Shown in pieces: positions 1 to 13,187 of a stretch of DNA of 64,000 nucleotides; the stretch's first letter is position 1, and every line of letters starts with the position of its first letter. The stretch spans positions 715,001 to 779,000 of the forward strand of contig NZ_CP040058.1 of NCBI RefSeq assembly GCF_005280655.1, in the 5' to 3' direction. Under the pieces are notes generated by a model. The model was not told the origin of the DNA. It searched no databases and saw only the letters and a list, made by a program, of their open reading frames with translations. The translations under genes were made by a program, and so were the position numbers. This DNA comes from Anaerostipes rhamnosivorans. Lineage in GTDB: Bacteria > Bacillota > Clostridia > Lachnospirales > Lachnospiraceae.

Positions 1-1419
1 GGAGTCAAACGTCGGGACGAGCCCGGCATTCTGCAGGTGGGGATCGCACCTGACCGGCTTTTGCGGGCGAAAAAACGGAACGAGCTTTCTTATGTTATTT
101 CCAGAGTGCCTGCGGACGAGGGATATGTACTTTTTGCTGTCAATGTCAAGAATGGAAAGATGGTTGCCCACTCAGAAGGAAAAAGGATGCAGGAGGTCAT
201 GTCAGAATTTAATTATTCTGACCGGCGGATGAGGCAGTTCAGGGATGGCAAGTTTTACGGAAGCGGAGACCGGAAGAAGTTTTATGTGCTGAGAAGGCAT
301 GGCAATCTATTATTAGGGACTGGGGTGACCGCCAAGGCCCTGTATGCGGAGAGCGGGGAACAGATGGGCATATCATTTCTATATCTGTTACTCACATCCG
401 TTATAATGCTCATTATGATCAACTATCTTCTAAAGCAAAAAATCATCGACGGCGTTCATCGGATTGCCTATGATCTGAAGCGGATCACGGAGGGCCATCT
501 TGAAACCGTGGTAGAGGAGGACAGCAACCCTGAATTCAGACAGCTGAGCCAGGGGATCAACCAGATGGTAGGAAGCGTTCTGGAAGCGTCTGTAAAAGTC
601 ACAAAAGTGATCGATACAGTGGATCTTCCTATTGGCGTATTTGAATATCATGAGGATTCGGACCATGTGATGGCCACAGAGAGGCTCCGCAGAGTTCTAA
701 GGTGGAGTGAAGAGGAGGCTGAACAGCTTTTTTGCAACAGGAAAGCTTTTGAAGCCAGACTGCAGGAGATTATGAACGATCCCTTGGCCGGAGCTGAGGA
801 GATTTATTATGTGAGCAAAGACCCAGACCAGTGGATCCGGATCCATATGACAAGAGAAAAGGGAAGTACATTCGGCGTGGTTGTGGATGTGACGGAGGAT
901 ATCAGGGAAAAGAGAAGGATCGAGCATGAAAGAGATTATGATCACCTGACAGGTCTTTGTAATATCAGTATATTTCACAGGACCACGGAACGCCTGCTGG
1001 AAAGTGATATCAAAACGGCGGCTATGATCATGATGGATCTAGATTGTTTTAAAGGGGTCAATGACCATTATGGGCACGACTGGGGAGACCAGTATCTGAA
1101 GACATTCGCAGGACTCCTTGACACGCTCAACGGCCCCCATGGAATCGCGGGAAGGCGTTCTGGAGATGAATTCTGCCTGTTCTTACACGGATATAATTCC
1201 AAAGATGACATACGGAAGGCCATAGAAGACTTCTATAATAGAATCGAAGAAAAGAAGATCCTGTTTCCGGATGGGGACCTCCGCAGTATAAAGATTTCAT
1301 CCGGTCTGGTGTGGGTATCCCAGGGCGACAGCTACATAAGAATCATGAAAGACGCTGATATGGCCATGTATGAGACAAAACGCAGCGGGAAGGGCTTTTT
1401 AAGCGAGTGTGGCAAATAA
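1..1419 (+). CDS. membrane diguanylate cyclase, 5' end outside window
   Basis: The reading frame is open from base 1 with no stop, so the first methionine at 37 is not a real start and the gene is cut by the window edge. The N-terminal part looks like the end of an extracellular sensor domain. It is followed by one membrane helix (bases about 370-440), a HAMP-like linker, a PAS-like segment and a C-terminal GGDEF domain beginning at DHLTGL. The active-site signature reads RSGDEF, a tolerated variant of GGDEF, and the metal-binding MDLD motif is present. The family makes cyclic di-GMP from two GTP at the inner membrane face. A strong hairpin follows the stop. The sensed signal is unknown. Confidence 0.9.
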   Translation, partial: GVKRRDEPGILQVGIAPDRLLRAKKRNELSYVISRVPADEGYVLFAVNVKNGKMVAHSEGKRMQEVMSEFNYSDRRMRQFRDGKFYGSGDRKKFYVLRRHGNLLLGTGVTAKALYAESGEQMGISFLYLLLTSVIMLIMINYLLKQKIIDGVHRIAYDLKRITEGHLETVVEEDSNPEFRQLSQGINQMVGSVLEASVKVTKVIDTVDLPIGVFEYHEDSDHVMATERLRRVLRWSEEEAEQLFCNRKAFEARLQEIMNDPLAGAEEIYYVSKDPDQWIRIHMTREKGSTFGVVVDVTEDIREKRRIEHERDYDHLTGLCNISIFHRTTERLLESDIKTAAMIMMDLDCFKGVNDHYGHDWGDQYLKTFAGLLDTLNGPHGIAGRRSGDEFCLFLHGYNSKDDIRKAIEDFYNRIEEKKILFPDGDLRSIKISSGLVWVSQGDSYIRIMKDADMAMYETKRSGKGFLSECGK

Positions 1420-1505: not shown

Positions 1506-3626
1506 TTATTCTGGCAGCTCTCTATTCTCTTCCAGGAAACGGCAGAATTCTGAAAGCGGCATGGGGCGTCCGAACAGATAACCCTGGATGCCTTCACAGC
1601 GCAGCGCTTTTAAGATCTCAAATTGATCCTGTGTCTCCACACCCTCCACGATAAACTGGATATTCATGGTCTTGCAGATGTAGGCCAGTGCCTGGACGAA
1701 CATCACTGCTTTGTCGTTGCTCTCAATGGAATCGATCATGCTTTTGTCTAGTTTTAGTGTGTCGATGTCACTGTTGAGCACCAGTGACAGATTGGCGTAC
1801 TTTACGCCGAAATCATCGATGGCTACGGAAAAACCGGCATTTTTGATATCCCGGATCATATCATCCAGAAATGATTCATCTGTATAATCGGCACTCTCCG
1901 TGATCTCAAACTCCAAAAGATGCCGGGGCACCTTATATTGGTCACAGATCGTCAGAATCGTTTTTAAAAAGTCAGCGTCCAGCAGCGTAAATCTTGAGAA
2001 ATTTACGGAGATAGGAAAGACAGGGGATCCGGATCTTATAAAGTCCTGGATGATCTGACAAACCCTTTCAAATACGAAGAAGTCCACGTATTTGATGGTC
2101 ATTGCTGATTCCAGCACAGGAATAAAGTAGATCGGCGGTTCTATGGCCCCGTCTTTGCTGATATATCGGACCAGAGCCTCGGCACCGATGACTTCCTGGG
2201 TGCTGCACAGAACCTTGGGCTGCAGATAGACGCAGAAACGTTGGTCCTCGATGGCTTTTAGGAGCTGGTCCACACTCTTTAAGTTCAGCCGGTCGTCAAA
2301 GTAGTTCCGGTATCTGGAAGAGTTGGGATTGGAACGGTAAAACTCTTTTTTATCCGTGTACATCATCTCATCAGCTTCAGTCAGAAGTGCCTGGAAGTCA
2401 GATGGATTCTCAGACCAGCTGTATCCCACGGCACCGCTGCAGTCTACAGAGTGAGAAAATAAATATTTCAGCTCCCTTATGGTGCGCATGAAGTTTTCCT
2501 TATCCGTGTTCATGCAGAGGATGGCAAACTCGTCCCCTCCGATACGGTAAATCGTATGCTCTGAAAAGATGACTTGAAGCTTTTTGGCAGAATCCTTCAG
2601 GATCTGGTCACCGAACTGATGTCCCTTTGAGTCGTTGATATCCTTTAGTCCATTCAGATCCAGATAGATGACGCCTACAGTTTCTAAACGCTGTTTTGCG
2701 TAATACTCCAGGTCTTCGTTAAAGCGGTTGCGGTTATAGAGTCCGGTCAGTGTATCATGGTAGCTTAAATCCTTGAGGATACGGTATGTATGCATCTGGT
2801 CCATACTGGAAGACAGAAAATAGCTGAGAGTCTCCAATATGGGTTCCACCTGTTCAAATAAATCATCAGGAGGATTATCAACACCGATATATCCGGCCAG
2901 GTGCTGATTGGTAAAAAGCGGGGCTGCGATCAACCGTTTTATCCCCTGTGAGGAAAGGATCCTGTATTCTTCCGGTGACTGCGTACGGAGTTCTTCCATA
3001 TCTCGGATGAAGATACACCGGTTGTTCTCGAATTCAATCCGCCAGCGGTCAATAAGATCGGCAGGTAAGTTTTGCAGCTGGTCGATCTCTGGTTTGACAT
3101 TTTCGGCACACCATTCATGGGTGTTATTCATAAACTGGCCCTCAATCTCAAAGATGTACGCTCTCTCGGCGGACAAAAACTTCCCGGTCTTTTCCAGGAT
3201 CATCTGGATGGCTGTTTCCAGTTCTTTGGTCTGGTAGAGGATTCTCAAACACTCCAGCACCAGCTCTTCCCCTTTGGCTTTATTCTTTAAAAGCTGTTCC
3301 TGTTCTTCCTGTTCTGTCAGGTCAAAGCCGATCTCCATCCGGGCAACGTGCCCGTCCCATTCTACTAGTTTATCTTTTAAAATAAAATGGCGGTCCGTCA
3401 TTTCATTGGTAAACCGCCATGTATAAACTGAATCGTAGGACAGCAGGTGATTCGTGCAGAATTCACACGGCTGATCCTTGCCCTGAAGAAGCTGGTAGCA
3501 TTTTTCACCTTCATAGCTGTCCACTTGAAACAAACGTTTTCCGGAGCTGTTTAAGTACAGCATTTCATAGGTTTCCACGTCAGCGACGTAGATCACCTCT
3601 GCAATTTCATCAATCAATTTAAACAA
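1506..3626 (-). CDS. GAF-GGDEF-EAL cyclic di-GMP phosphodiesterase/cyclase
   Basis: A soluble 706-residue protein with an N-terminal PAS-like region, a GAF-like domain (about residues 125-275), a GGDEF domain with intact RIGGDEF, and a C-terminal EAL domain. The EAL catalytic set is present: EALVR, FEITES, DDFG, KLDKS and EGVET. Both halves look competent on sequence, so it may make or degrade c-di-GMP; in many such fusions the EAL activity dominates. The start is a TTG at 3624-3626 behind an AGGGG-type ribosome site; no in-frame ATG lies near. No membrane segment is visible, so the signal is probably cytoplasmic. It converges on the preceding cyclase gene. Confidence 0.92.
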   Translation of the reverse strand: MFKLIDEIAEVIYVADVETYEMLYLNSSGKRLFQVDSYEGEKCYQLLQGKDQPCEFCTNHLLSYDSVYTWRFTNEMTDRHFILKDKLVEWDGHVARMEIGFDLTEQEEQEQLLKNKAKGEELVLECLRILYQTKELETAIQMILEKTGKFLSAERAYIFEIEGQFMNNTHEWCAENVKPEIDQLQNLPADLIDRWRIEFENNRCIFIRDMEELRTQSPEEYRILSSQGIKRLIAAPLFTNQHLAGYIGVDNPPDDLFEQVEPILETLSYFLSSSMDQMHTYRILKDLSYHDTLTGLYNRNRFNEDLEYYAKQRLETVGVIYLDLNGLKDINDSKGHQFGDQILKDSAKKLQVIFSEHTIYRIGGDEFAILCMNTDKENFMRTIRELKYLFSHSVDCSGAVGYSWSENPSDFQALLTEADEMMYTDKKEFYRSNPNSSRYRNYFDDRLNLKSVDQLLKAIEDQRFCVYLQPKVLCSTQEVIGAEALVRYISKDGAIEPPIYFIPVLESAMTIKYVDFFVFERVCQIIQDFIRSGSPVFPISVNFSRFTLLDADFLKTILTICDQYKVPRHLLEFEITESADYTDESFLDDMIRDIKNAGFSVAIDDFGVKYANLSLVLNSDIDTLKLDKSMIDSIESNDKAVMFVQALAYICKTMNIQFIVEGVETQDQFEILKALRCEGIQGYLFGRPMPLSEFCRFLEENRELPE

Positions 3627-3813: not shown

Positions 3814-3842
3814 TTGACACATATATCCTACACGTGTAAGAT
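3814..3842 (+). promoter_or_regulatory. PBP promoter with BlaI/MecI-type operator
   Basis: TTGACA (3814-3819), 17-base spacer, TAAGAT (3837-3842). Between the two boxes and touching the -10 lies the perfect palindrome TACACGTGTA (3829-3838), which fits the TACA/TGTA half-sites bound by BlaI and MecI repressors. Repressor bound here would block RNA polymerase. The same half-site arrangement recurs before blaI. Confidence 0.75.
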
Positions 3843-3890
3843 ATAGATAATATCTGAGTAACTGAAACTTCAATGTAAAAGGAGGTCTGA

Positions 3891-5909
3891 ATGAATAAGA
3901 AAAGAATCTTGATCCCTGTGGCAGCCGTGATCCTGGCTGTTCTTGGGTACTTTCTCTGGAGCAGGTTCGGGGCCGGACAGCCGGAGGATGTGCTCTCTGA
4001 GTATGCAGCTTGTATTGGAAAAAAGGATTATGAGTCCATGTACGGACTTTTAGATAAGAGCAGCAGGAAAGAAATTTCAAAAAAGGAATTTATCCAGAGG
4101 AATCAAAAGATCTATCAGGGGATAGAGGCAGAAAATATTAAGATTATTGTGGATAAAGATTCGGAAGGAAATAAGGTTACCTACCGTATGTCCATGGATA
4201 CCCTGGCAGGCCGTATCTCCTTTAAAAATGAAGCTTATTTTGAGAAGGAGAGCGGGGATTACCGTTTAAAATGGGATGACAGTATGATCTTTCCCGATAT
4301 GGAATTTACGGACAAGGTGCGGGTGACGAAACTGAAAGGAAACCGGGGAGAGATCTATGACCGGAACAAAAAGCTGCTGGCCGGAAAAGGAAAGGCCGCA
4401 TCCGTGGGCATCGTCCCGGGCAAGATGAAGGACAGGAAAACCTCAGTGGCAGCACTGGCCAGGCTTCTTGATATGAAGAAAGCGGACATAGACAAAAAGC
4501 TGAACGCTTCATGGGTCACAAAAGATTCTTTTGTGCCGGTCAAAAAGATGACAATGGCCAGCGAAGAAAAAATAGAAAAACAGCTGCTGAAGGTACCGGG
4601 TGTGTTAGTCTCCTCTGAGGATACCAGGGTCTATCCGTACGGAAAGGCAGCCTCCCATCTGACCGGATACGTACAGGAGATCAGCGCAGATGACCTGAAA
4701 AACCTCAGAGACAAAGGCTATGAGCAGGGACAGCTGGTGGGGAAAAGCGGCCTTGAGGCGCTGTACGAGGACCGGCTTCACGAGACAGACGGATATAAGA
4801 TCTCGATTCTCAACGAAGACGGCAGAGAAAAGAAAGTGCTGGCAGTAAAAAAAGAAAAGAACGGGGAAGCAATCTATACGACCATCGACGCAAAGCTTCA
4901 GACAAAGATCTATGAGCAGTATAAAAATGATAAGAGCTGTTCTGTGATGATGAACCCGAAAACAGGGGAAGTACTGGCTCTGGTCAGCACTCCGTCCTAT
5001 GACAGCAATGATTTTGTGCTGGGGATCTCTTCTGGCCAATGGAAAAAACTGAACAGTGACAAAGCAAAGCCCTTATATAACCGCTTCCGCCAGAAATGGG
5101 CACCGGGCTCAGCTTTTAAACCCGTGGTGGCTGGCATGGGCATGAATACGGGAAAACTGGATCCCAATCAGGACTTTGGATACAGCGGATTGTCCTGGCA
5201 GAAGGACAGCAGCTGGGGATCCTATAAGGTGACTACGCTGCATACATATGAGAATGCAGTGCTTAAAAATGCACTGATCTATTCGGACAATATTTATTTT
5301 GCAAAGGCGGCGTTAAAGATCGGGGCCAAAGGTTATGTGAGCCAGGCCAAACATCTGGGCTTTGGGACAGAGATGCCTTTCGACATTAAGACAGCAGTCT
5401 CACAGTTTTCTAATAACAAAAAGAGCATTGACACAGAGATCCAGCTGGCGGACAGCGGATACGGACAGGGCCAGGTTCTGGTAAATCCCATCCATCTGGC
5501 ATCGATCTATTCTGCTTTTTCCAACGAAGGCAGCATGATACGTCCTTACCTGCTCTATAAAGAAAAACTGGAGCCGGAATATTGGATCAAGGATGCATTC
5601 TCCAAAAAGACGGCGGGCGTTCTTAAGGAGGACTTGGTCCAGGTCATCGAGCATCCAAACGGAACAGGACATGGGGCGAAGACGTCCGGCGTAAAGCTGG
5701 CGGGAAAGACCGGGACAGCGGAGATCAAGGCCAGCAAGGACGATACCACCGGCACAGAGCTCGGATGGTTTAGTATATTTACCGTGGATAAGAAAGAAAA
5801 AGAGCCATGGCTTTTGATCACCATGGCGGAGGATGTGAAAGACCGGGGTGGAAGCGGCTATGTTGTAGGAAAGACAAAAGCCGTGATCAAAGAGAAAGAG
5901 TCCCGATGA
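3891..5909 (+). CDS. PBP2a/MecA-like class B penicillin-binding protein
   Basis: 672 residues, very close to the 668 of staphylococcal PBP2a. An N-terminal membrane anchor (residues 5-24) is followed by an NTF2-like MecA_N domain (about 30-140), a dimerisation/pedestal domain and a transpeptidase domain. Catalytic motifs lie at S407-A-F-K410, S465-D-N and K606-T-G-T, nearly the same positions as in PBP2a. It would cross-link peptidoglycan outside the membrane. Strong AAAGGAGGT ribosome site. A BlaI-type operator sits in the promoter, and blaR1/blaI lie convergently downstream, so the gene is probably beta-lactam inducible. Low drug affinity cannot be judged from sequence. The 3' end overlaps blaR1 by 23 bases. 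Confidence 0.93.
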   Translation: MNKKRILIPVAAVILAVLGYFLWSRFGAGQPEDVLSEYAACIGKKDYESMYGLLDKSSRKEISKKEFIQRNQKIYQGIEAENIKIIVDKDSEGNKVTYRMSMDTLAGRISFKNEAYFEKESGDYRLKWDDSMIFPDMEFTDKVRVTKLKGNRGEIYDRNKKLLAGKGKAASVGIVPGKMKDRKTSVAALARLLDMKKADIDKKLNASWVTKDSFVPVKKMTMASEEKIEKQLLKVPGVLVSSEDTRVYPYGKAASHLTGYVQEISADDLKNLRDKGYEQGQLVGKSGLEALYEDRLHETDGYKISILNEDGREKKVLAVKKEKNGEAIYTTIDAKLQTKIYEQYKNDKSCSVMMNPKTGEVLALVSTPSYDSNDFVLGISSGQWKKLNSDKAKPLYNRFRQKWAPGSAFKPVVAGMGMNTGKLDPNQDFGYSGLSWQKDSSWGSYKVTTLHTYENAVLKNALIYSDNIYFAKAALKIGAKGYVSQAKHLGFGTEMPFDIKTAVSQFSNNKKSIDTEIQLADSGYGQGQVLVNPIHLASIYSAFSNEGSMIRPYLLYKEKLEPEYWIKDAFSKKTAGVLKEDLVQVIEHPNGTGHGAKTSGVKLAGKTGTAEIKASKDDTTGTELGWFSIFTVDKKEKEPWLLITMAEDVKDRGGSGYVVGKTKAVIKEKESR

Positions 5910-7668
5910 TCTCCAAGGCGGTCTTTGCCGCCTCCTGCCCGGAGGCGTTGTCCTCTCCCTGGAGCCTCAGTGTGAAATAATAGGTATTGTCTTTTGTTTT
6001 CAGAAAGCCGATGAACCAGCCGTTTTTGTCGCGGCCGTCTACTCTGCCGGTACCGGTCTTGCCATAGAGGACACGCCCGGTACCGGCAGACAGTTTGATT
6101 GAATGTCTTACGGCATCTACGCTCTCTCTGGAATAACCCAGACGGTTCTGGTCGAGATCCCTAAGGAGTGCTGTCTGTTCCAGAGGAGAGATTTTTAAGG
6201 TAGACTCCAGCCAGAAGGAAGAAAGACCTCCGGATATATCTGCGTTTCCGTATCCGATGCGCTTTAAATTTCTCTGTACAGCGGCTGATCCAAGCTTCTG
6301 GTCAAGCCTTTGGAAGTACCAGTTGACGGAGGATTCCATGGCGCTTATCAGGGTCTGATCCTGGTTCCAGGACGCAAAGGGATAATCTGTATGATCCCAG
6401 GAAAGGCTGTTTTTCTCTGGGGAAATCACACCGGCATCCAGGGCTGCCAGGGCGCTGTATAGTTTGTAAGTGGAATCCGGAGAGACCCTCTGCCGGCTCA
6501 TCTTTTCATTATAGATGCTGTACCGTGCTTTCTTCTTGTCATACAGAACAAAGCAGCCCTCTTTTCCTGAAAAATGAGAGGAGAGGTCCAGGCTTATAAA
6601 AGGGCGGTCCGGGGCTTTGGAGACGGATCCGGCCATTATGTTGTTCTTCAGGAAGAAGGAGGAGAACAGCAGTCCAAAAACCAGGAGAAACACTATACTC
6701 GCAAGGTGTTTCTTTTTTGATGCCCTGCGGTAGGAGGCGATAGCTGTGATCCGCTGTCTAAGCTGGGATCTGCTGCCGCCGATGCCGGAGGAAACCGAAA
6801 GAACTTCCACGGAGGAAAGAGATCCGGCAAAGTTTAAGATGGTATGTCCGTAATTTCTCCATTCCTTTTGGTCGATACAGTTCAGGACAGCTGCGTCACA
6901 GGCAATCTCCCGGTCTGTGCGCATTTTTCTGAGGGAGTATAGGACCGCTGGATGAAACCAGTATAAGGCCCGGATGATGCAGCAGACAATGTTACAGACT
7001 AAGTCGCCCCGCTTGTAATGGCTCAGTTCATGATAGAAAATGTAGGACAGCTCTTTTTCAGAGAAGGCAGATAGACACTTTTTAGGAAATACGGCCACCG
7101 GGAAAAACAGGCCGAAGGCCATGGGGCTGTCCGTTTTTTCTGAGAGCACAAAGCGGATCCTGCGCCGGATCTTCAGATCCTTTTTACATTGGAGAAAAAG
7201 ACGTTCAGCTTCCGGATTCTTGATAAACGCCATGGATCGGCCCAGCCGGTTTAAACGGATGCGGCTGTACAGCAGGATCACAGCCATGGTCACAGTTCCG
7301 GCAAACCAGATCCAGAACAAGGCGGTCAGGAAGGAAGGGGATATGGACGTCCGGACAGACACGGCGTAGTCCTTCATCCAGCTGGAGGAGCCGGATACAG
7401 CAGAAGCAGAGAGGACCGAAGAGCCTTGACGGGTATTGCGGACAAAGCTGTTTAGGAGGGGAGAGGAGGAGAGAAAGGACGGAAGCCGGATGGGCAGAAA
7501 GAAAAAGAGCGCGGCGAAACAGTACAAATACCAGATGGAATGCTGGATTTGCAAAGTCAGGCAGCGCTTTAAAAGCTTTTTGGCAGCCAGAATCACAGGC
7601 AGGGCCAAAAAAAGGAGCAGGCAGTGGATGAGGAACTCTTTCATCAGCGAAGCGTACATCTTATTCAT
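5887..7668 (-). CDS. blaR1: BlaR1/MecR1-type beta-lactam sensor protease
   Basis: 593 residues with several N-terminal membrane helices, an M56 metalloprotease loop with zinc motif HELSH (about residues 213-217), another helix near 325-345, and a C-terminal extracellular penicillin-binding sensor. The sensor has S399-T-Y-K, S447-V-N and K537-T-G-T, so it can be acylated. In the family, acylation activates the cytoplasmic protease, which leads to repressor cleavage. The ATG overlaps the end of blaI by 8 bases and its ribosome site GAGGGGG lies inside blaI, indicating translational coupling. The stop lies inside the convergent PBP gene. Confidence 0.95.
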   Translation of the reverse strand: MNKMYASLMKEFLIHCLLLFLALPVILAAKKLLKRCLTLQIQHSIWYLYCFAALFFFLPIRLPSFLSSSPLLNSFVRNTRQGSSVLSASAVSGSSSWMKDYAVSVRTSISPSFLTALFWIWFAGTVTMAVILLYSRIRLNRLGRSMAFIKNPEAERLFLQCKKDLKIRRRIRFVLSEKTDSPMAFGLFFPVAVFPKKCLSAFSEKELSYIFYHELSHYKRGDLVCNIVCCIIRALYWFHPAVLYSLRKMRTDREIACDAAVLNCIDQKEWRNYGHTILNFAGSLSSVEVLSVSSGIGGSRSQLRQRITAIASYRRASKKKHLASIVFLLVFGLLFSSFFLKNNIMAGSVSKAPDRPFISLDLSSHFSGKEGCFVLYDKKKARYSIYNEKMSRQRVSPDSTYKLYSALAALDAGVISPEKNSLSWDHTDYPFASWNQDQTLISAMESSVNWYFQRLDQKLGSAAVQRNLKRIGYGNADISGGLSSFWLESTLKISPLEQTALLRDLDQNRLGYSRESVDAVRHSIKLSAGTGRVLYGKTGTGRVDGRDKNGWFIGFLKTKDNTYYFTLRLQGEDNASGQEAAKTALEIIGTLSL

Positions 7669-8047
7669 CCCCCTCAGTCAGGCCCTTGTCTAGGAGCTTT
7701 CTCAGGTCGTCGATCTCCTGGGAAGTCAGCCTGTCTTCCTCCAGAAAGTTCGAGACCATGGAGCTGATGCAGCCGTTATAAAAACGATTTAGAAAAGAAG
7801 AACTCTCTTTACTGAGCACCTCATTCTCCTCCACGAGAGGGGTATAATAAAAGGCTCTGCCCTGCTTTTCATAAGTGAGAGCACCCTTTTTTACCAGCCT
7901 TGAGAGCATGGTCTGGACCGTCTTAGGGCTCCATCCATTTGAGGCGGCCAGCATTTCGGTTACTTCCGGGGTACTGACCGGCGTATGGGACCAGACGGCT
8001 TTCATCACTTTATATTCAGCATCTGAAATCTGGGGAATCGGTTTCAT
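7661..8047 (-). CDS. blaI: BlaI/MecI-family repressor
   Basis: 128 residues with a winged-helix DNA-binding domain (about 1-72, helix around SPKTVQTMLSRL) and a C-terminal dimerisation domain, the normal BlaI size. The start at 8047 is preceded by AAAGGAGAC; an upstream in-frame methionine lacks such a site. An Asn-Phe bond at about residues 100-101 (SNFLEE) matches the site where staphylococcal BlaI/MecI (N101-F102) is cut on induction. Co-transcribed with blaR1. Predicted to repress its own operon and the PBP gene through TACA-N2-TGTA operators. Confidence 0.94.
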   Translation of the reverse strand: MKPIPQISDAEYKVMKAVWSHTPVSTPEVTEMLAASNGWSPKTVQTMLSRLVKKGALTYEKQGRAFYYTPLVEENEVLSKESSSFLNRFYNGCISSMVSNFLEEDRLTSQEIDDLRKLLDKGLTEGDE

Positions 8048-8067
8048 TGGTTGTCTCCTTTTAATCT

Positions 8068-8115
8068 TACAAATGTAGTATATGAAATTATAACATAACA
8101 TCATAAAAAAAGCAA
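8068..8115 (-). promoter_or_regulatory. blaI-blaR1 promoter and operator
   Basis: On the minus strand, TTGCTT (8115-8110), a 17-base spacer and TATAAT (8092-8087) form a good promoter. The operator TACAAATGTA (8068-8077; TACA-N2-TGTA on either strand) lies about ten bases downstream of the -10, near the expected start of transcription. It matches the spacing of the PBP operator, supporting autoregulation by BlaI. Confidence 0.65.
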
Positions 8116-8148
8116 AGCTGGAACCACGGTATTTATGGTTCCAGCTTT
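8114..8148 (-). terminator. terminator of the marR gene
   Basis: Thirteen-base stem AAAGCTGGAACCA / TGGTTCCAGCTTT with a nine-base loop. On the minus strand it is followed by TGCTTTTTTT. The stem overlaps the last codons of the MarR gene and the -35 of blaI. Confidence 0.8.
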
Positions 8149-8576
8149 TTTAGAATTCTCAGTGTTGTCTCGGCAGCCTGTTTTAATTCGTCAAGATCGT
8201 CTTCTGAAAGCCGGTCGAAAGACAGTTTCAGGTGACGGATGAAGCTTTGTTTGGCCTCCTGTATCATTCGGATTCCCTGATCAGAAAGCCGGATATAGAC
8301 GTATCTGCGGTTTTCTTCATCCACATAGCGTTCCACCAATCCCTCTTTTACAAGAGGAGCTACCGCACGGGTTGTCTGTTCTTTGGATGACGCGATAAAC
8401 TTGGACAGCTTTGACATGGTAAGGCCCGGTTTTACTTCCAGTGCAAACAAAATGGACAGCTGGCTCTTGGTCAGATTCAGTTCCTTCATGTCCACGGAAC
8501 AAAAGATCAGTTTGCGGCACAGTGGAAAGATTTCGAACAGAGATACTGCGATTCCCTTCGATTCTGACTGGTTCAT
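8133..8576 (-). CDS. MarR-family regulator, divergent from citrate synthase
   Basis: 147 residues with a MarR winged helix: recognition region about residues 55-85 (LTMSKLSKFIASSKEQTTRAV) and a wing with DEENRR. The start has an upstream GGAGAGGAT-type site (minus strand). It is transcribed away from the citrate synthase gene, and the two promoters share inverted repeats. The likely role is autorepression plus control of the citrate synthase gene. No ligand can be read from the sequence. Confidence 0.88.
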   Translation of the reverse strand: MNQSESKGIAVSLFEIFPLCRKLIFCSVDMKELNLTKSQLSILFALEVKPGLTMSKLSKFIASSKEQTTRAVAPLVKEGLVERYVDEENRRYVYIRLSDQGIRMIQEAKQSFIRHLKLSFDRLSEDDLDELKQAAETTLRILKKLEP

Positions 8577-8607: not shown

Positions 8608-8668
8608 AGTATAGACAGTTCCTTGACAAGTGTCAATGGTTGACAAATATCAATCGTTGAGGTATGAT
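8608..8668. promoter_or_regulatory. face-to-face promoters with MarR operators
   Basis: Plus strand: TTGACA (8640-8645), 17 bases, TATGAT (8663-8668) for citrate synthase. Minus strand: TTGACA (8636-8631), 17 bases, TATACT (8613-8608) for marR. The -35 boxes lie in inverted repeats TTGACA-AG-TGTCAA (8623-8636, perfect) and TTGACA-AA-TATCAA (8640-8653, one mismatch), spaced 17 bases apart, with a further TCAA-N3-TTGA at 8650-8660. A dimer bound here would block both promoters. Confidence 0.7.
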
Positions 8669-12025: not shown

Positions 12026-12098
12026 CAAGCTGGGGTTTTGGGTTGATGTAGTGTATGATAGATAGGAAGGAACCGTGAAAAAAGAATGGGAGGCTGTT

Positions 12099-13187
12099 AT
12101 GGAAAACAATATCTCATATGCAAAGTGGAAAGGGCAGCTGATGAAGCTGAACCTGGTCATCATCCTGGCGCTGTCGGTGTTGGAATTCGGGCTCTATTTC
12201 GGAATCCGCCAGGCGGGAAAGATGTATGTGGGGTTTGATGTCTATCTGGTAAAATATATTATAGTGCCGCTTCTGATCAACATGGGCAGCTGGCTGCTCT
12301 GTCATTTTCTCCTGAAAAGAGAGAAGATCTCGCAGAGAAACAGGAACTTTATCACCCTTTTCAGCAGCCTTATGATCTGTCTCTGCATCGCCTGTGTCCA
12401 CAATGATTTTGTGGTGGTCATCTGCTTTTTTAGCCTGGTGATTATTATTTCGGGTCTTTTCGGCGATATTTTATTGACGAAGATGATCACGGGGCTGTCT
12501 CTGGGAGGCATGGCGATATCCGCCTGTTACGCGGCTTTCCACGAGAAGAGCGGGGATGTTGATTATATGTTTGAGGTGGCAGTTACAGTGGCATTTCTGA
12601 TCTTCACCTACTTATTTACCCGCATTATCATCGAATACAACAATGAACAGCTGAAACGCCTGAGCCAGACTTATCACCGCCTGGAACGTTTAGAGCACAG
12701 GATCCTTTTAGATCCTCTCACCGGGCTCTATAATCATACGGCGTTTTATACCATATTAAATAACCAGCTGGAGGAATGCAGGGATTCCGGGCAGGCTGTC
12801 ACACTGGCGGTGATCGACATTGATGATTTTAAGAAAGTCAACGACCGCTTCGGACATGAAAACGGCAATCTGGTCCTGATCCGGCTGTCTTCTTTACTCC
12901 AGACTTTCTGCGGCCCAAAAGGGTATGCATGCCGTTACGGCGGGGAGGAGTTTACGGTCATCTTTCCGGGCATGAAAAAGGAAAAAGCCAAGGAACTGAT
13001 GGAAAAGATCAGGATTGAATTTTCATGTTCTTCTTATCCATTCTTACAGGGAGAAAAGGTCACATTCAGCTGCGGGATCTATGAGTGTACGGATACAGCT
13101 GTGCATCCGCAGGAAATTTTCCAAAAAGCAGACGATATGATGTATCAGGCAAAGGATTTGGGGAAAAATCAATGTAAGATGAAGTAA
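12099..13187 (+). CDS. membrane diguanylate cyclase
   Basis: 362 residues. About six membrane helices fill the first 190 residues, then a short coiled linker (SQTYHRLERLEHR) and a GGDEF domain with DPLTGLYNH, the metal site AVIDIDDFKKVND and the active site RYGGEEF. Predicted to make cyclic di-GMP at the membrane. The start at 12099 has GGGAGG five bases upstream; a GTG at 12075 behind AGGAAGG is a real alternative that adds eight residues. It is 18 bases upstream of glycerate kinase and may share a transcript, though no functional link is obvious. Confidence 0.9.
   Translation: MENNISYAKWKGQLMKLNLVIILALSVLEFGLYFGIRQAGKMYVGFDVYLVKYIIVPLLINMGSWLLCHFLLKREKISQRNRNFITLFSSLMICLCIACVHNDFVVVICFFSLVIIISGLFGDILLTKMITGLSLGGMAISACYAAFHEKSGDVDYMFEVAVTVAFLIFTYLFTRIIIEYNNEQLKRLSQTYHRLERLEHRILLDPLTGLYNHTAFYTILNNQLEECRDSGQAVTLAVIDIDDFKKVNDRFGHENGNLVLIRLSSLLQTFCGPKGYACRYGGEEFTVIFPGMKKEKAKELMEKIRIEFSCSSYPFLQGEKVTFSCGIYECTDTAVHPQEIFQKADDMMYQAKDLGKNQCKMK

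What the first reader, a model, noticed from the sequence alone, without database searches (positions are those of the whole stretch)
3814..8115. Complete BlaR1/BlaI regulon around a PBP2a-like protein in a gut anaerobe
The PBP matches PBP2a in length and in the spacing of SxxK, SDN and KTGT motifs, with a MecA_N domain. Beside it are a sensor-protease and a BlaI repressor that keeps the Asn-Phe cleavage bond at residues 100-101. TACA-N2-TGTA palindromes lie in both promoters. In staphylococci mecA is divergent from mecR1-mecI; here the genes converge. This suggests an inducible, mobilisable-looking resistance circuit, although no transposon is visible.
Basis: partly seen in the sequence, partly recalled or inferred. 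Interest (0 to 1): 0.8.

Follow-up and report, generated by a model that had tools for sequence, protein, structure and literature searches.

The report
Probable penicillin-sensing wall-repair switch
A probable gut bacterium carries, in its ordinary chromosome, a likely beta-lactam-sensing switch beside a spare cell-wall enzyme; relatives keep the layout and the switch sites, and the same sites mark a lipoprotein and a wall-cutting enzyme elsewhere in the genome, which points to an inherited wall-repair programme rather than a mobile resistance gene.

Summary
In detail: a MecA_N-type class B PBP (3891-5909 +), a full-length BlaR1 (5887-7668 -) and a BlaI (7661-8047 -, N100-F101), with the window's only two TACANNTGTA sites in their promoters. 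Comparison supports an inducible circuit; mobility is not supported. In 150 genomes of the same family, 14 of 16 with PBP and BlaR1 have the operator before the PBP, against 0 of 11 with PBP but no BlaR1. In 13 of 13 sampled genomes where both lie together they converge. The PBP misses NCBI's Mec cut-off and is nearer PBP4(5). The same operator precedes a DUF6070 lipoprotein and a GH25 muramidase elsewhere in this genome; DUF6070 occurs with BlaR1 in 17 of its 21 genomes. I read it as a chromosomal BlaI wall-stress regulon with a new candidate member. Against: the Asn-Phe bond is in only 5 of 18 BlaI read, and a Blautia annotated with blaI/blaR1 was ampicillin-sensitive. Induction, binding and drug affinity are untested.

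The parts
3814..3842 (+). PBP promoter: -35 TTGACA 3814-3819, 17-nt spacer, -10 TAAGAT 3837-3842; the operator lies in spacer and -10
   Evidence: 10 of 12 matches; 8 promoter-like sites in the stretch against 5.7 in shuffles, so weak alone; same promoter in G006 and G003
3829..3838 (.). BlaI operator TACACGTGTA, overlapping the -10
   Evidence: 2 mismatches to the published mec/bla consensus, which has 15 specified bases
3891..5909 (+). pbp: 672-aa class B PBP, MecA_N (NTF2-like) + PBP_dimer + transpeptidase; S407xxK, S465DN, K606TGT
5887..5909 (.). 23-bp tail-to-tail overlap of pbp and blaR1
   Evidence: same 23 bp in G003 and G006
5804..5827 (-). terminator-like hairpin downstream of blaR1, inside the pbp coding sequence
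   Evidence: 8 such sites against 5.3 in shuffles; same place in G006 and G003; may be kept only because it is coding
5887..7668 (-). blaR1: 593-aa M56 protease (HELSH 213) with beta-lactam sensor domain (S399TYK, S447VN, K537TG)
7661..8047 (-). blaI: 128-aa repressor, N100-F101; overlaps blaR1 by 8 bp
8068..8077 (.). BlaI operator of the blaI-blaR1 operon (TACATTTGTA on the - strand), 9 nt after the -10
   Evidence: (1 mismatch)
8087..8092 (-). -10 of the blaI promoter (TATAAT on the - strand, preceded by TGT)
   Evidence: read; gap to operator 9 nt; not reported by the promoter scan
8114..8148 (-). terminator-like hairpin between marR (8133-8576) and blaI
   Evidence: similar in G006

Best explanation
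This is the control centre of a chromosomal, inherited BlaI/BlaR1 regulon. In the resting cell a BlaI dimer sits on TACA-N2-TGTA sites in the promoters of blaI-blaR1 and of pbp (in the latter across the -10). A beta-lactam acylates the outer sensor domain of BlaR1; its inner metalloprotease then cuts BlaI at Asn100-Phe101 and the promoters open. The PBP, probably of low beta-lactam affinity, takes over cross-linking; in trans the same switch raises a DUF6070 lipoprotein and a GH25 muramidase. Shown: genes, catalytic motifs, cleavage dipeptide in this BlaI, operators, their promoter geometry, their conservation and dependence on the presence of BlaR1, and the two distant operators. Inferred: binding, cleavage, induction, low affinity and the benefit to the cell.
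For: Family and motif matches. Operators differ from the published mec/bla consensus at 1-2 of 15 specified bases (consensus from the Fig. 2 legend of PMC5341023, passages seen). Of 27 family genomes with the PBP, an operator lies upstream in 14 of the 16 with BlaR1 and 0 of the 11 without (Fisher 6e-6). Genus: 7 of 10 PBP copies carry it directly, one more at the head of its operon; the two without are G005, the only PBP-bearing genome there with no BlaR1 over the cut-off, and the second copy of G007. Specific promoter pattern: 23 sites in 20 of 299 genomes, 0 for the reversed pattern (the pattern was drawn from genus and Blautia promoters, so the sites in G000 and G007 are not independent); 18 of 23 stand before PBP, transpeptidase-domain or DUF6070 genes (four of the 18 judged by eye). 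In trans in this genome: DUF6070 site exact in G003 and with 1 mismatch in G006; GH25 site exact in G003.
Against: No binding, induction or affinity data. The Asn-Phe bond is not general among relatives: 5 of 18 BlaI read have it; of the others, 12 could be seen at that place and show Ser, Ala, Thr or Asn before Tyr or Phe (11) or Ser-Leu (1). The loose motif (TACANNTGTAAGA, up to 1 mismatch) is not enriched genome-wide: 62 sites against 89 for the control. G035 and G151 have PBP and BlaR1 but no operator within 700 bp; G143's second PBP copy has none. The BlaR1 autocleavage Ser-Phe of S. aureus reads Gly-Ile here, judged from one pairwise alignment. Blautia producta DSM 2950, annotated with blaI and blaR1, had ampicillin MIC <1 and amoxicillin MIC <0.5 ug/ml (PMC8146736, passages). 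The GH25 site was seen in 2 genomes (G000, G003) of the 8 in the genus whose closer copies I read.
Confidence: 0.75

Rival explanations
1. The regulon answers mainly to cell-wall damage (natural wall-active compounds, muropeptides), and the PBP is a spare transpeptidase of ordinary drug affinity; beta-lactam resistance is not the function.
For: Chromosomal locus kept with its neighbours in two congeners; targets include a muramidase and a lipoprotein; a peptidoglycan dipeptide releases BlaI and MecI from DNA in vitro (PMC3305447, passages); Blautia producta with blaI/blaR1 was ampicillin-sensitive; most relatives lack the exact Asn-Phe bond.
Against: BlaR1 keeps an intact-looking penicillin-binding sensor domain, and MecA_N-type relatives in the PDB include PBP2a and an entry named low-affinity PBP5.
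Confidence: 0.35
2. The sites belong to a CopY copper repressor, whose operator has the same ten-base core, and not to BlaI.
For: CopY binds TACANNTGTA, and this core alone predicts binding poorly (PMC7253601, abstract and passages).
Against: Of the 7 Penicillinase_R hits in this genome, four other BlaI-like proteins end without a CxC motif and have no TACANNTGTA site before them within the fetched 1.5 kb (L003 has one 3' of its gene); L006 and L007 read by eye as MarR-like. The site tracks BlaR1 across genomes.
Confidence: 0.03
3. A recently acquired, mobile mec-like cassette.
For: Priestia megaterium plasmids carry a convergent PBP-bla / blaR1-blaI locus with paired TACANNTGTA sites before the PBP.
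Against: Same neighbours in G003 and G006 with 81-82% PBP identity; no plasmid record at 60% identity or more; no mobility genes seen near (by eye).
Confidence: 0.03
4. A relic: the genes are present but the switch no longer works.
For: Gly-Ile in place of the autocleavage Ser-Phe; susceptible Blautia.
Against: The three reading frames are intact; the M56 motif is kept in the G003 and G006 BlaR1, the N-F bond in their BlaI, the operators in both; autocleavage-deficient S. aureus BlaR1 still cuts BlaI, at a reduced level (PMC9834060, passages).
Confidence: 0.07

Closest known systems
Staphylococcal mecA-mecR1-mecI and blaZ-blaR1-blaI; Macrococcus mecD-mecR1m-mecIm
   Same: Sensor-protease, repressor with an Asn-Phe bond, operator consensus, effector PBP with MecA_N domain
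   Different: In mecD one operator serves a divergent promoter pair (PMC5341023 passages); here two separate operators, convergent genes with overlapping 3' ends, and further targets in trans. MecA on plasmids is 36.5% identical.
Enterococcal PBP4(5)/PBP5 and PDB 7bn9 'Penicillin-binding protein 3'
   Same: Best sequence matches of the PBP (NF051842, 590 bits; 7bn9, 492 bits)
   Different: Below the NF051842 cut-off of 700; BlaI control of those PBPs was not examined here
Priestia megaterium plasmid loci (NZ_CP085447.1, NZ_CP018877.1)
   Same: PBP convergent with blaR1 and blaI; TACANNTGTA pair before the PBP
   Different: Plasmid-borne; class A beta-lactamase follows the PBP; blaR1 precedes blaI; PBP 37-38% and BlaR1 41% identical
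[quoted passage not shown]
   Same: Small clostridial BlaI regulons with BlaR1 in the target operons (PMC8457756, passages)
   Different: Different motif (GTCTAT/GACTAT); no MecA_N PBP or DUF6070 named in the passages seen
Clostridioides difficile blaR/blaI beta-lactamase system
   Same: BlaR-regulated beta-lactam response in an anaerobe (recalled, and cited; paper not held)
   Different: Effector is a class D beta-lactamase (recalled)

Membership tests
BlaR1 sensor-protease | M56 domain fused to a penicillin-binding sensor; NCBIfam cut-off | tested here: met
   NF000326 595 bits vs 400; HELSH, STYK, SVN, KTG
BlaR1 sensor-protease | S. aureus-type Ser-Phe autocleavage site | tested here: not met
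   Gly-Ile in the aligned place, one pairwise alignment; the S. aureus F284A mutant still cuts BlaI at a reduced level
BlaI/MecI repressor | Penicillinase_R fold and Asn-Phe bond at about residue 100 | tested here: met
   PF03965 126.7 bits; N100-F101. Relatives: only 5 of 18 read have Asn-Phe
BlaI/MecI repressor | mec/bla operator in its own and the target promoter | tested here: met
BlaI/MecI repressor | DNA binding and BlaR1-dependent cleavage | not testable with these tools
   needs purified proteins or cells
BlaI/MecI repressor | NCBIfam cut-off of a named BlaI or MecI model | tested here: not met
   best NF012168 111.5 vs 180 bits; these models are of type 'exception', narrower than the family
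CopY repressor | C-terminal CxC metal motifs; TIGR02698 cut-off | tested here: not met
   no CxC in the sequence; 101.3 vs 121.95 bits
PBP2a (Mec) family | NCBIfam MECA_PBP2A cut-off | tested here: not met
   445 vs 750 bits
PBP2a (Mec) family | MecA_N + PBP_dimer + transpeptidase | tested here: met
PBP2a (Mec) family | Low beta-lactam affinity | not testable with these tools
   needs acylation kinetics
PBP4(5) equivalog NF051842 | Curated cut-off | tested here: not met
   590 vs 700 bits
Mobile mec element | Recombinase/transposase or plasmid carriage, foreign context | tested here: not met
   (by eye)
IseA autolysin inhibitor (for DUF6070, outside the window) | IseA fold | tested here: inconclusive

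The most novel reading that the evidence does not exclude
In this family of anaerobes BlaR1/BlaI does not guard one resistance gene but runs a dispersed wall-repair regulon: a MecA_N PBP, a previously unassigned DUF6070 lipoprotein (C-terminal domain predicted NTF2-like) and, in some species, a muramidase or a second class B PBP. DUF6070 would be a new working part of the beta-lactam response, and the muramidase could feed muropeptides back to the switch. The convergent, 3'-overlapping layout, with no terminator-like site found within 500 bp after the pbp stop in the three close species, could let the induced pbp transcript run antisense into blaR1 and damp the response.
Probability: 0.45. Interest if true: 0.68.

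Novelty: new variant of a known kind. Interest (0 to 1): 0.5.

Why it matters
Commensal anaerobes are bystanders of every oral beta-lactam course. If this reading is right, many of them carry an inherited, inducible survival programme whose reach can be read from the operator, and DUF6070 gets a first testable role. It also warns that BlaR1/BlaI or 'mec-like' hits in gut metagenomes need not mean a mobile resistance gene, or resistance at all.

Tried and rejected
A CopY origin of the operators was considered and rejected. Mobility was rejected (the collections may leave out records very near this genome). A phage link was rejected: the 16 phage records with a BlaR1 match are under 60% identical, and the six viral-contig hits of the promoter pattern show no wall gene downstream in the longest frames I listed. 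An IseA-like reading of DUF6070 arose with the whole model; with the C-terminal domain alone IseA ranked 39 in Foldseek and is not among the 50 VIA-align rows shown, so I do not lean on it. A profile of DUF6070 found no convincing PDB sequence relative (best E 0.059). The operator-BlaR1 test for DUF6070 itself is weak: 10 of 17 genomes against 0 of 4, p 0.055, with two or more of the ten sites inside the called open frame. The geometry pattern missed the PBP promoters because I set its gap too long; that geometry rests. The script prints '14 specified' as a label; the consensus has 15. One search stopped with an error at L109 in its last part, after the Asn-Phe table; the blaI-site counts therefore rest. 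E-value cut-offs (1e-90 PBP, 1e-70 BlaR1, 1e-20 DUF6070) define presence, and draft contigs may hide linkage. G114 counts as BlaR1-positive on a broken partial match (2 TAG); without it the operator test is 13 of 15. G103's PBP had only 85 bp upstream. Literature: no paper in the held library names DUF6070; searches pairing BlaI/BlaR1 with Clostridia, C. difficile, Lachnospiraceae, gut or Anaerostipes, or Anaerostipes with beta-lactam terms showed no paper on this regulon in the rows listed (at most 20 each of up to 2,512 papers); most subscription papers are not held.
Full report
What is there. The window is G000:C1:715001-779000 of a 3,588,860-base single-contig genome. The genus has 11 held genomes. 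The only named relative found by the PBP scan is Blautia parvula, 57% identical, a Lachnospiraceae species. Below, 'family' means the tool's own family of this genome.

The three genes. PBP 3891-5909 (+) has MecA_N, PBP_dimer and transpeptidase domains and S407xxK, S465DN, K606TGT. NCBIfam puts it nearest PBP4(5) (590 bits, cut-off 700), then MECA_PBP2A (445, cut-off 750); the best solved relative is 7bn9 'Penicillin-binding protein 3', E 4e-146. BlaR1 5887-7668 (-) passes NF000326 (595 against 400 bits) and aligns with the S. aureus BlaR1 structures over residues 16-582. BlaI 7661-8047 (-) matches MecI and BlaI structures and has Asn100-Phe101; S. aureus BlaI is cut at Asn101-Phe102 (PMC9834060, passages seen). 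BlaI and BlaR1 overlap by 8 bp; BlaR1 and PBP overlap tail to tail by 23 bp, the same 23 bp in G003 and G006.

Cleavage bond in relatives. Of 18 BlaI proteins read (8 genus, 10 family loci), 5 have Asn-Phe at this place: the window, G006, G003, G143 and G025. Twelve others could be seen there: five Ser-Tyr, two Ala-Tyr, one each of Thr-Tyr, Asn-Tyr, Ser-Phe, Ala-Phe and Ser-Leu; the printed tail of L249 did not reach it. So an aromatic residue after the bond is kept in 16 of 17 seen, the Asn is not. Either BlaR1 proteases of this family accept other residues before the bond or cleavage differs; this counts against copying the S. aureus mechanism to all relatives.

Operators. TACANNTGTA occurs exactly twice in 64 kb, in the two promoters. 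In shuffles of the two intergenic stretches each site arises with frequency 0.0066 and both together in 0 of 5000. The PBP site lies in the 17-nt spacer and -10 of a TTGACA/TAAGAT promoter; the blaI site lies 9 nt after TATAAT. They differ from the published mec/bla consensus at 2 and 1 of 15 specified bases (consensus from PMC5341023, passages).

Test across the genus (11 genomes). A BlaR1 over the cut-off is in 8 of 11 and the PBP in 9 of 11; G009 and G010 have neither. Ten PBP copies were read: 7 carry the operator (G000, G003, G006, G008, G001, G002, G004), one (G007:C13) lies in an operon headed by a 260-aa lipoprotein gene with two operators, and two lack it: G005, which has the PBP but no BlaR1 over the cut-off, and the second G007 copy. 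In G001, G002 and G004 blaI-blaR1 lies on another contig, so control there would be in trans. The exact site stands at the blaI-blaR1 operon in 7 of 8 genus loci (not G008; in L100, L109 and L110 it falls inside the called ORF but before the likely start) and 7 of 10 family loci (not L247, L249, L255).

Test across the family (150 genomes, one per genus). PBP in 27, BlaR1 in 25, DUF6070 in 21. PBP and BlaR1 share 16 genomes (Fisher 9e-9) and DUF6070 and BlaR1 share 17 (5e-13). An operator within 700 bp before the start of the PBP match: 14 of 16 BlaR1-positive genomes (exceptions G035, G151), 0 of 11 BlaR1-negative (6e-6). One of the 14, G114, counts on a broken partial BlaR1 match. The background is low: 1 exact site in 87,474 bases of control loci. 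These p-values treat genera as independent, which they are not wholly.

Layout. PBP and BlaR1 lie together in 9 of those 16 family genomes (G000 included) and in 4 further genus genomes; all 13 are convergent, none divergent. In several the space between holds DUF6070 genes. Two Priestia megaterium plasmids also have PBP-bla convergent with blaR1-blaI and paired operators before the PBP. So convergence is a recurrent design.

Targets in trans. Seven exact TACANNTGTAAGA sites exist in this genome. Four stand in promoters: PBP, blaI, a DUF6070 lipoprotein starting at 689840 (29 kb before the PBP start) and a 462-aa GH25 + Big_2 protein starting at 2637107 (-). For the other three I saw no convincing gene start. 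The DUF6070 site is exact in G003 and has one mismatch in G006; in G009 and G010, which lack BlaR1 over the cut-off, no exact site lies in the 4.5 kb around the gene. The GH25 site is exact in G003; of the other genomes with closer GH25 copies (G005-G010) none showed an exact site in the loci read. The looser motif shows no genome-wide excess (62 sites against 89 for the control), so only the promoter-placed exact sites carry weight.

What such promoters drive in the family. The pattern TTGACN{6,8}CYTACANNTGTAAKAT gave 23 sites in 20 of 299 genomes and none for the reversed pattern. Downstream genes (PBP coordinates; Pfam on 10 proteins, 9 of them from these loci; the 260-aa lipoprotein without Pfam match): 9 MecA_N PBPs (7 by coordinates, 2 by eye), 4 DUF6070 (Pfam), 4 class B PBPs without visible MecA_N (2 by Pfam, 2 by eye), 1 transpeptidase-domain lipoprotein (Pfam), 1 lipoprotein heading a PBP operon, 2 membrane-like proteins without a Pfam family, 1 BlaI-like (by eye), 1 without a clear frame.

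Mobility. G003 and G006 keep marR, citrate synthase, MATE and a second marR-like gene beside the locus; the GGDEF-EAL gene on the PBP side is kept in G003 only. G+C is even. Plasmid and phage records with matches are all under 60% identical.

Mechanism and limits. The best reading is BlaR1/BlaI derepression with two separate operators plus targets in trans. In support of a wall-fragment input, a peptidoglycan dipeptide releases BlaI and MecI from DNA in vitro at millimolar level (PMC3305447, passages). Against a simple resistance reading, Blautia producta DSM 2950, annotated with blaI and blaR1, was ampicillin- and amoxicillin-sensitive (PMC8146736, passages). Clostridial BlaI regulons have been mapped in C. 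thermocellum with another motif (PMC8457756, passages). A terminator-like hairpin for blaR1 lies inside the pbp coding region in all three close species, and none was listed within 500 bp after the pbp stop on the + strand (such sites were 8, 12 and 10 against 5.3, 5.1 and 4.7 in shuffles); antisense damping is therefore possible but unproven.

Verdict.

Noticed in passing
G000:C1:689840-690970 (+), outside the window (locus L167:3841-4971): DUF6070 (PF19546) lipoprotein with a BlaI-type operator in its promoter; DUF6070 co-occurs with BlaR1 in 17 of 21 family genomes.
   Followed up: partly
G000:C1:2635722-2637107 (-), outside the window (L044:94-1482): GH25 + Big_2 muramidase-like protein with an operator 5 nt after TATAAT; the G003 copy keeps the site.
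   Followed up: partly
BlaI of L101, L102, L108-L110, L243, L245-L247, L250, L251, L255: The Asn-Phe pair at the cleavage place differs in these relatives (Ser, Ala, Thr or Asn, then Tyr, Phe or Leu), while an aromatic residue after the bond is usually kept.
   Followed up: partly
L119 and L130 (G155, G211): Membrane-like proteins of at least 468 and 489 aa (cut by the locus end) without a Pfam family stand directly behind BlaI-type promoters.
   Followed up: no
L254 (G025:C64): A 351-aa lipoprotein-like protein with a transpeptidase domain, convergent with blaR1 and behind an operator; possibly a class D-type beta-lactamase.
   Followed up: no
L244 (G151:C12): A BlaI-like gene directly upstream of, and in one direction with, a MecA_N PBP, with no TACANNTGTA site in 8 kb; a different control logic.
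   Followed up: no
window 8133-8576 (-): MarR-family regulator between blaI and citrate synthase, kept in G003 and G006; sigma-70-like promoters near 8608-8668 on both strands.
   Followed up: no
L264 (NZ_CP018877.1): Priestia megaterium plasmid typed as mobilizable with PBP, class A beta-lactamase and a second PBP convergent with blaI and blaR1, and two operators before the PBP.
   Followed up: partly
window 37-1419, 1506-3626, 12075-13187: Three GGDEF-type proteins, one with EAL, close to the locus (two judged from sequence only).
   Followed up: no
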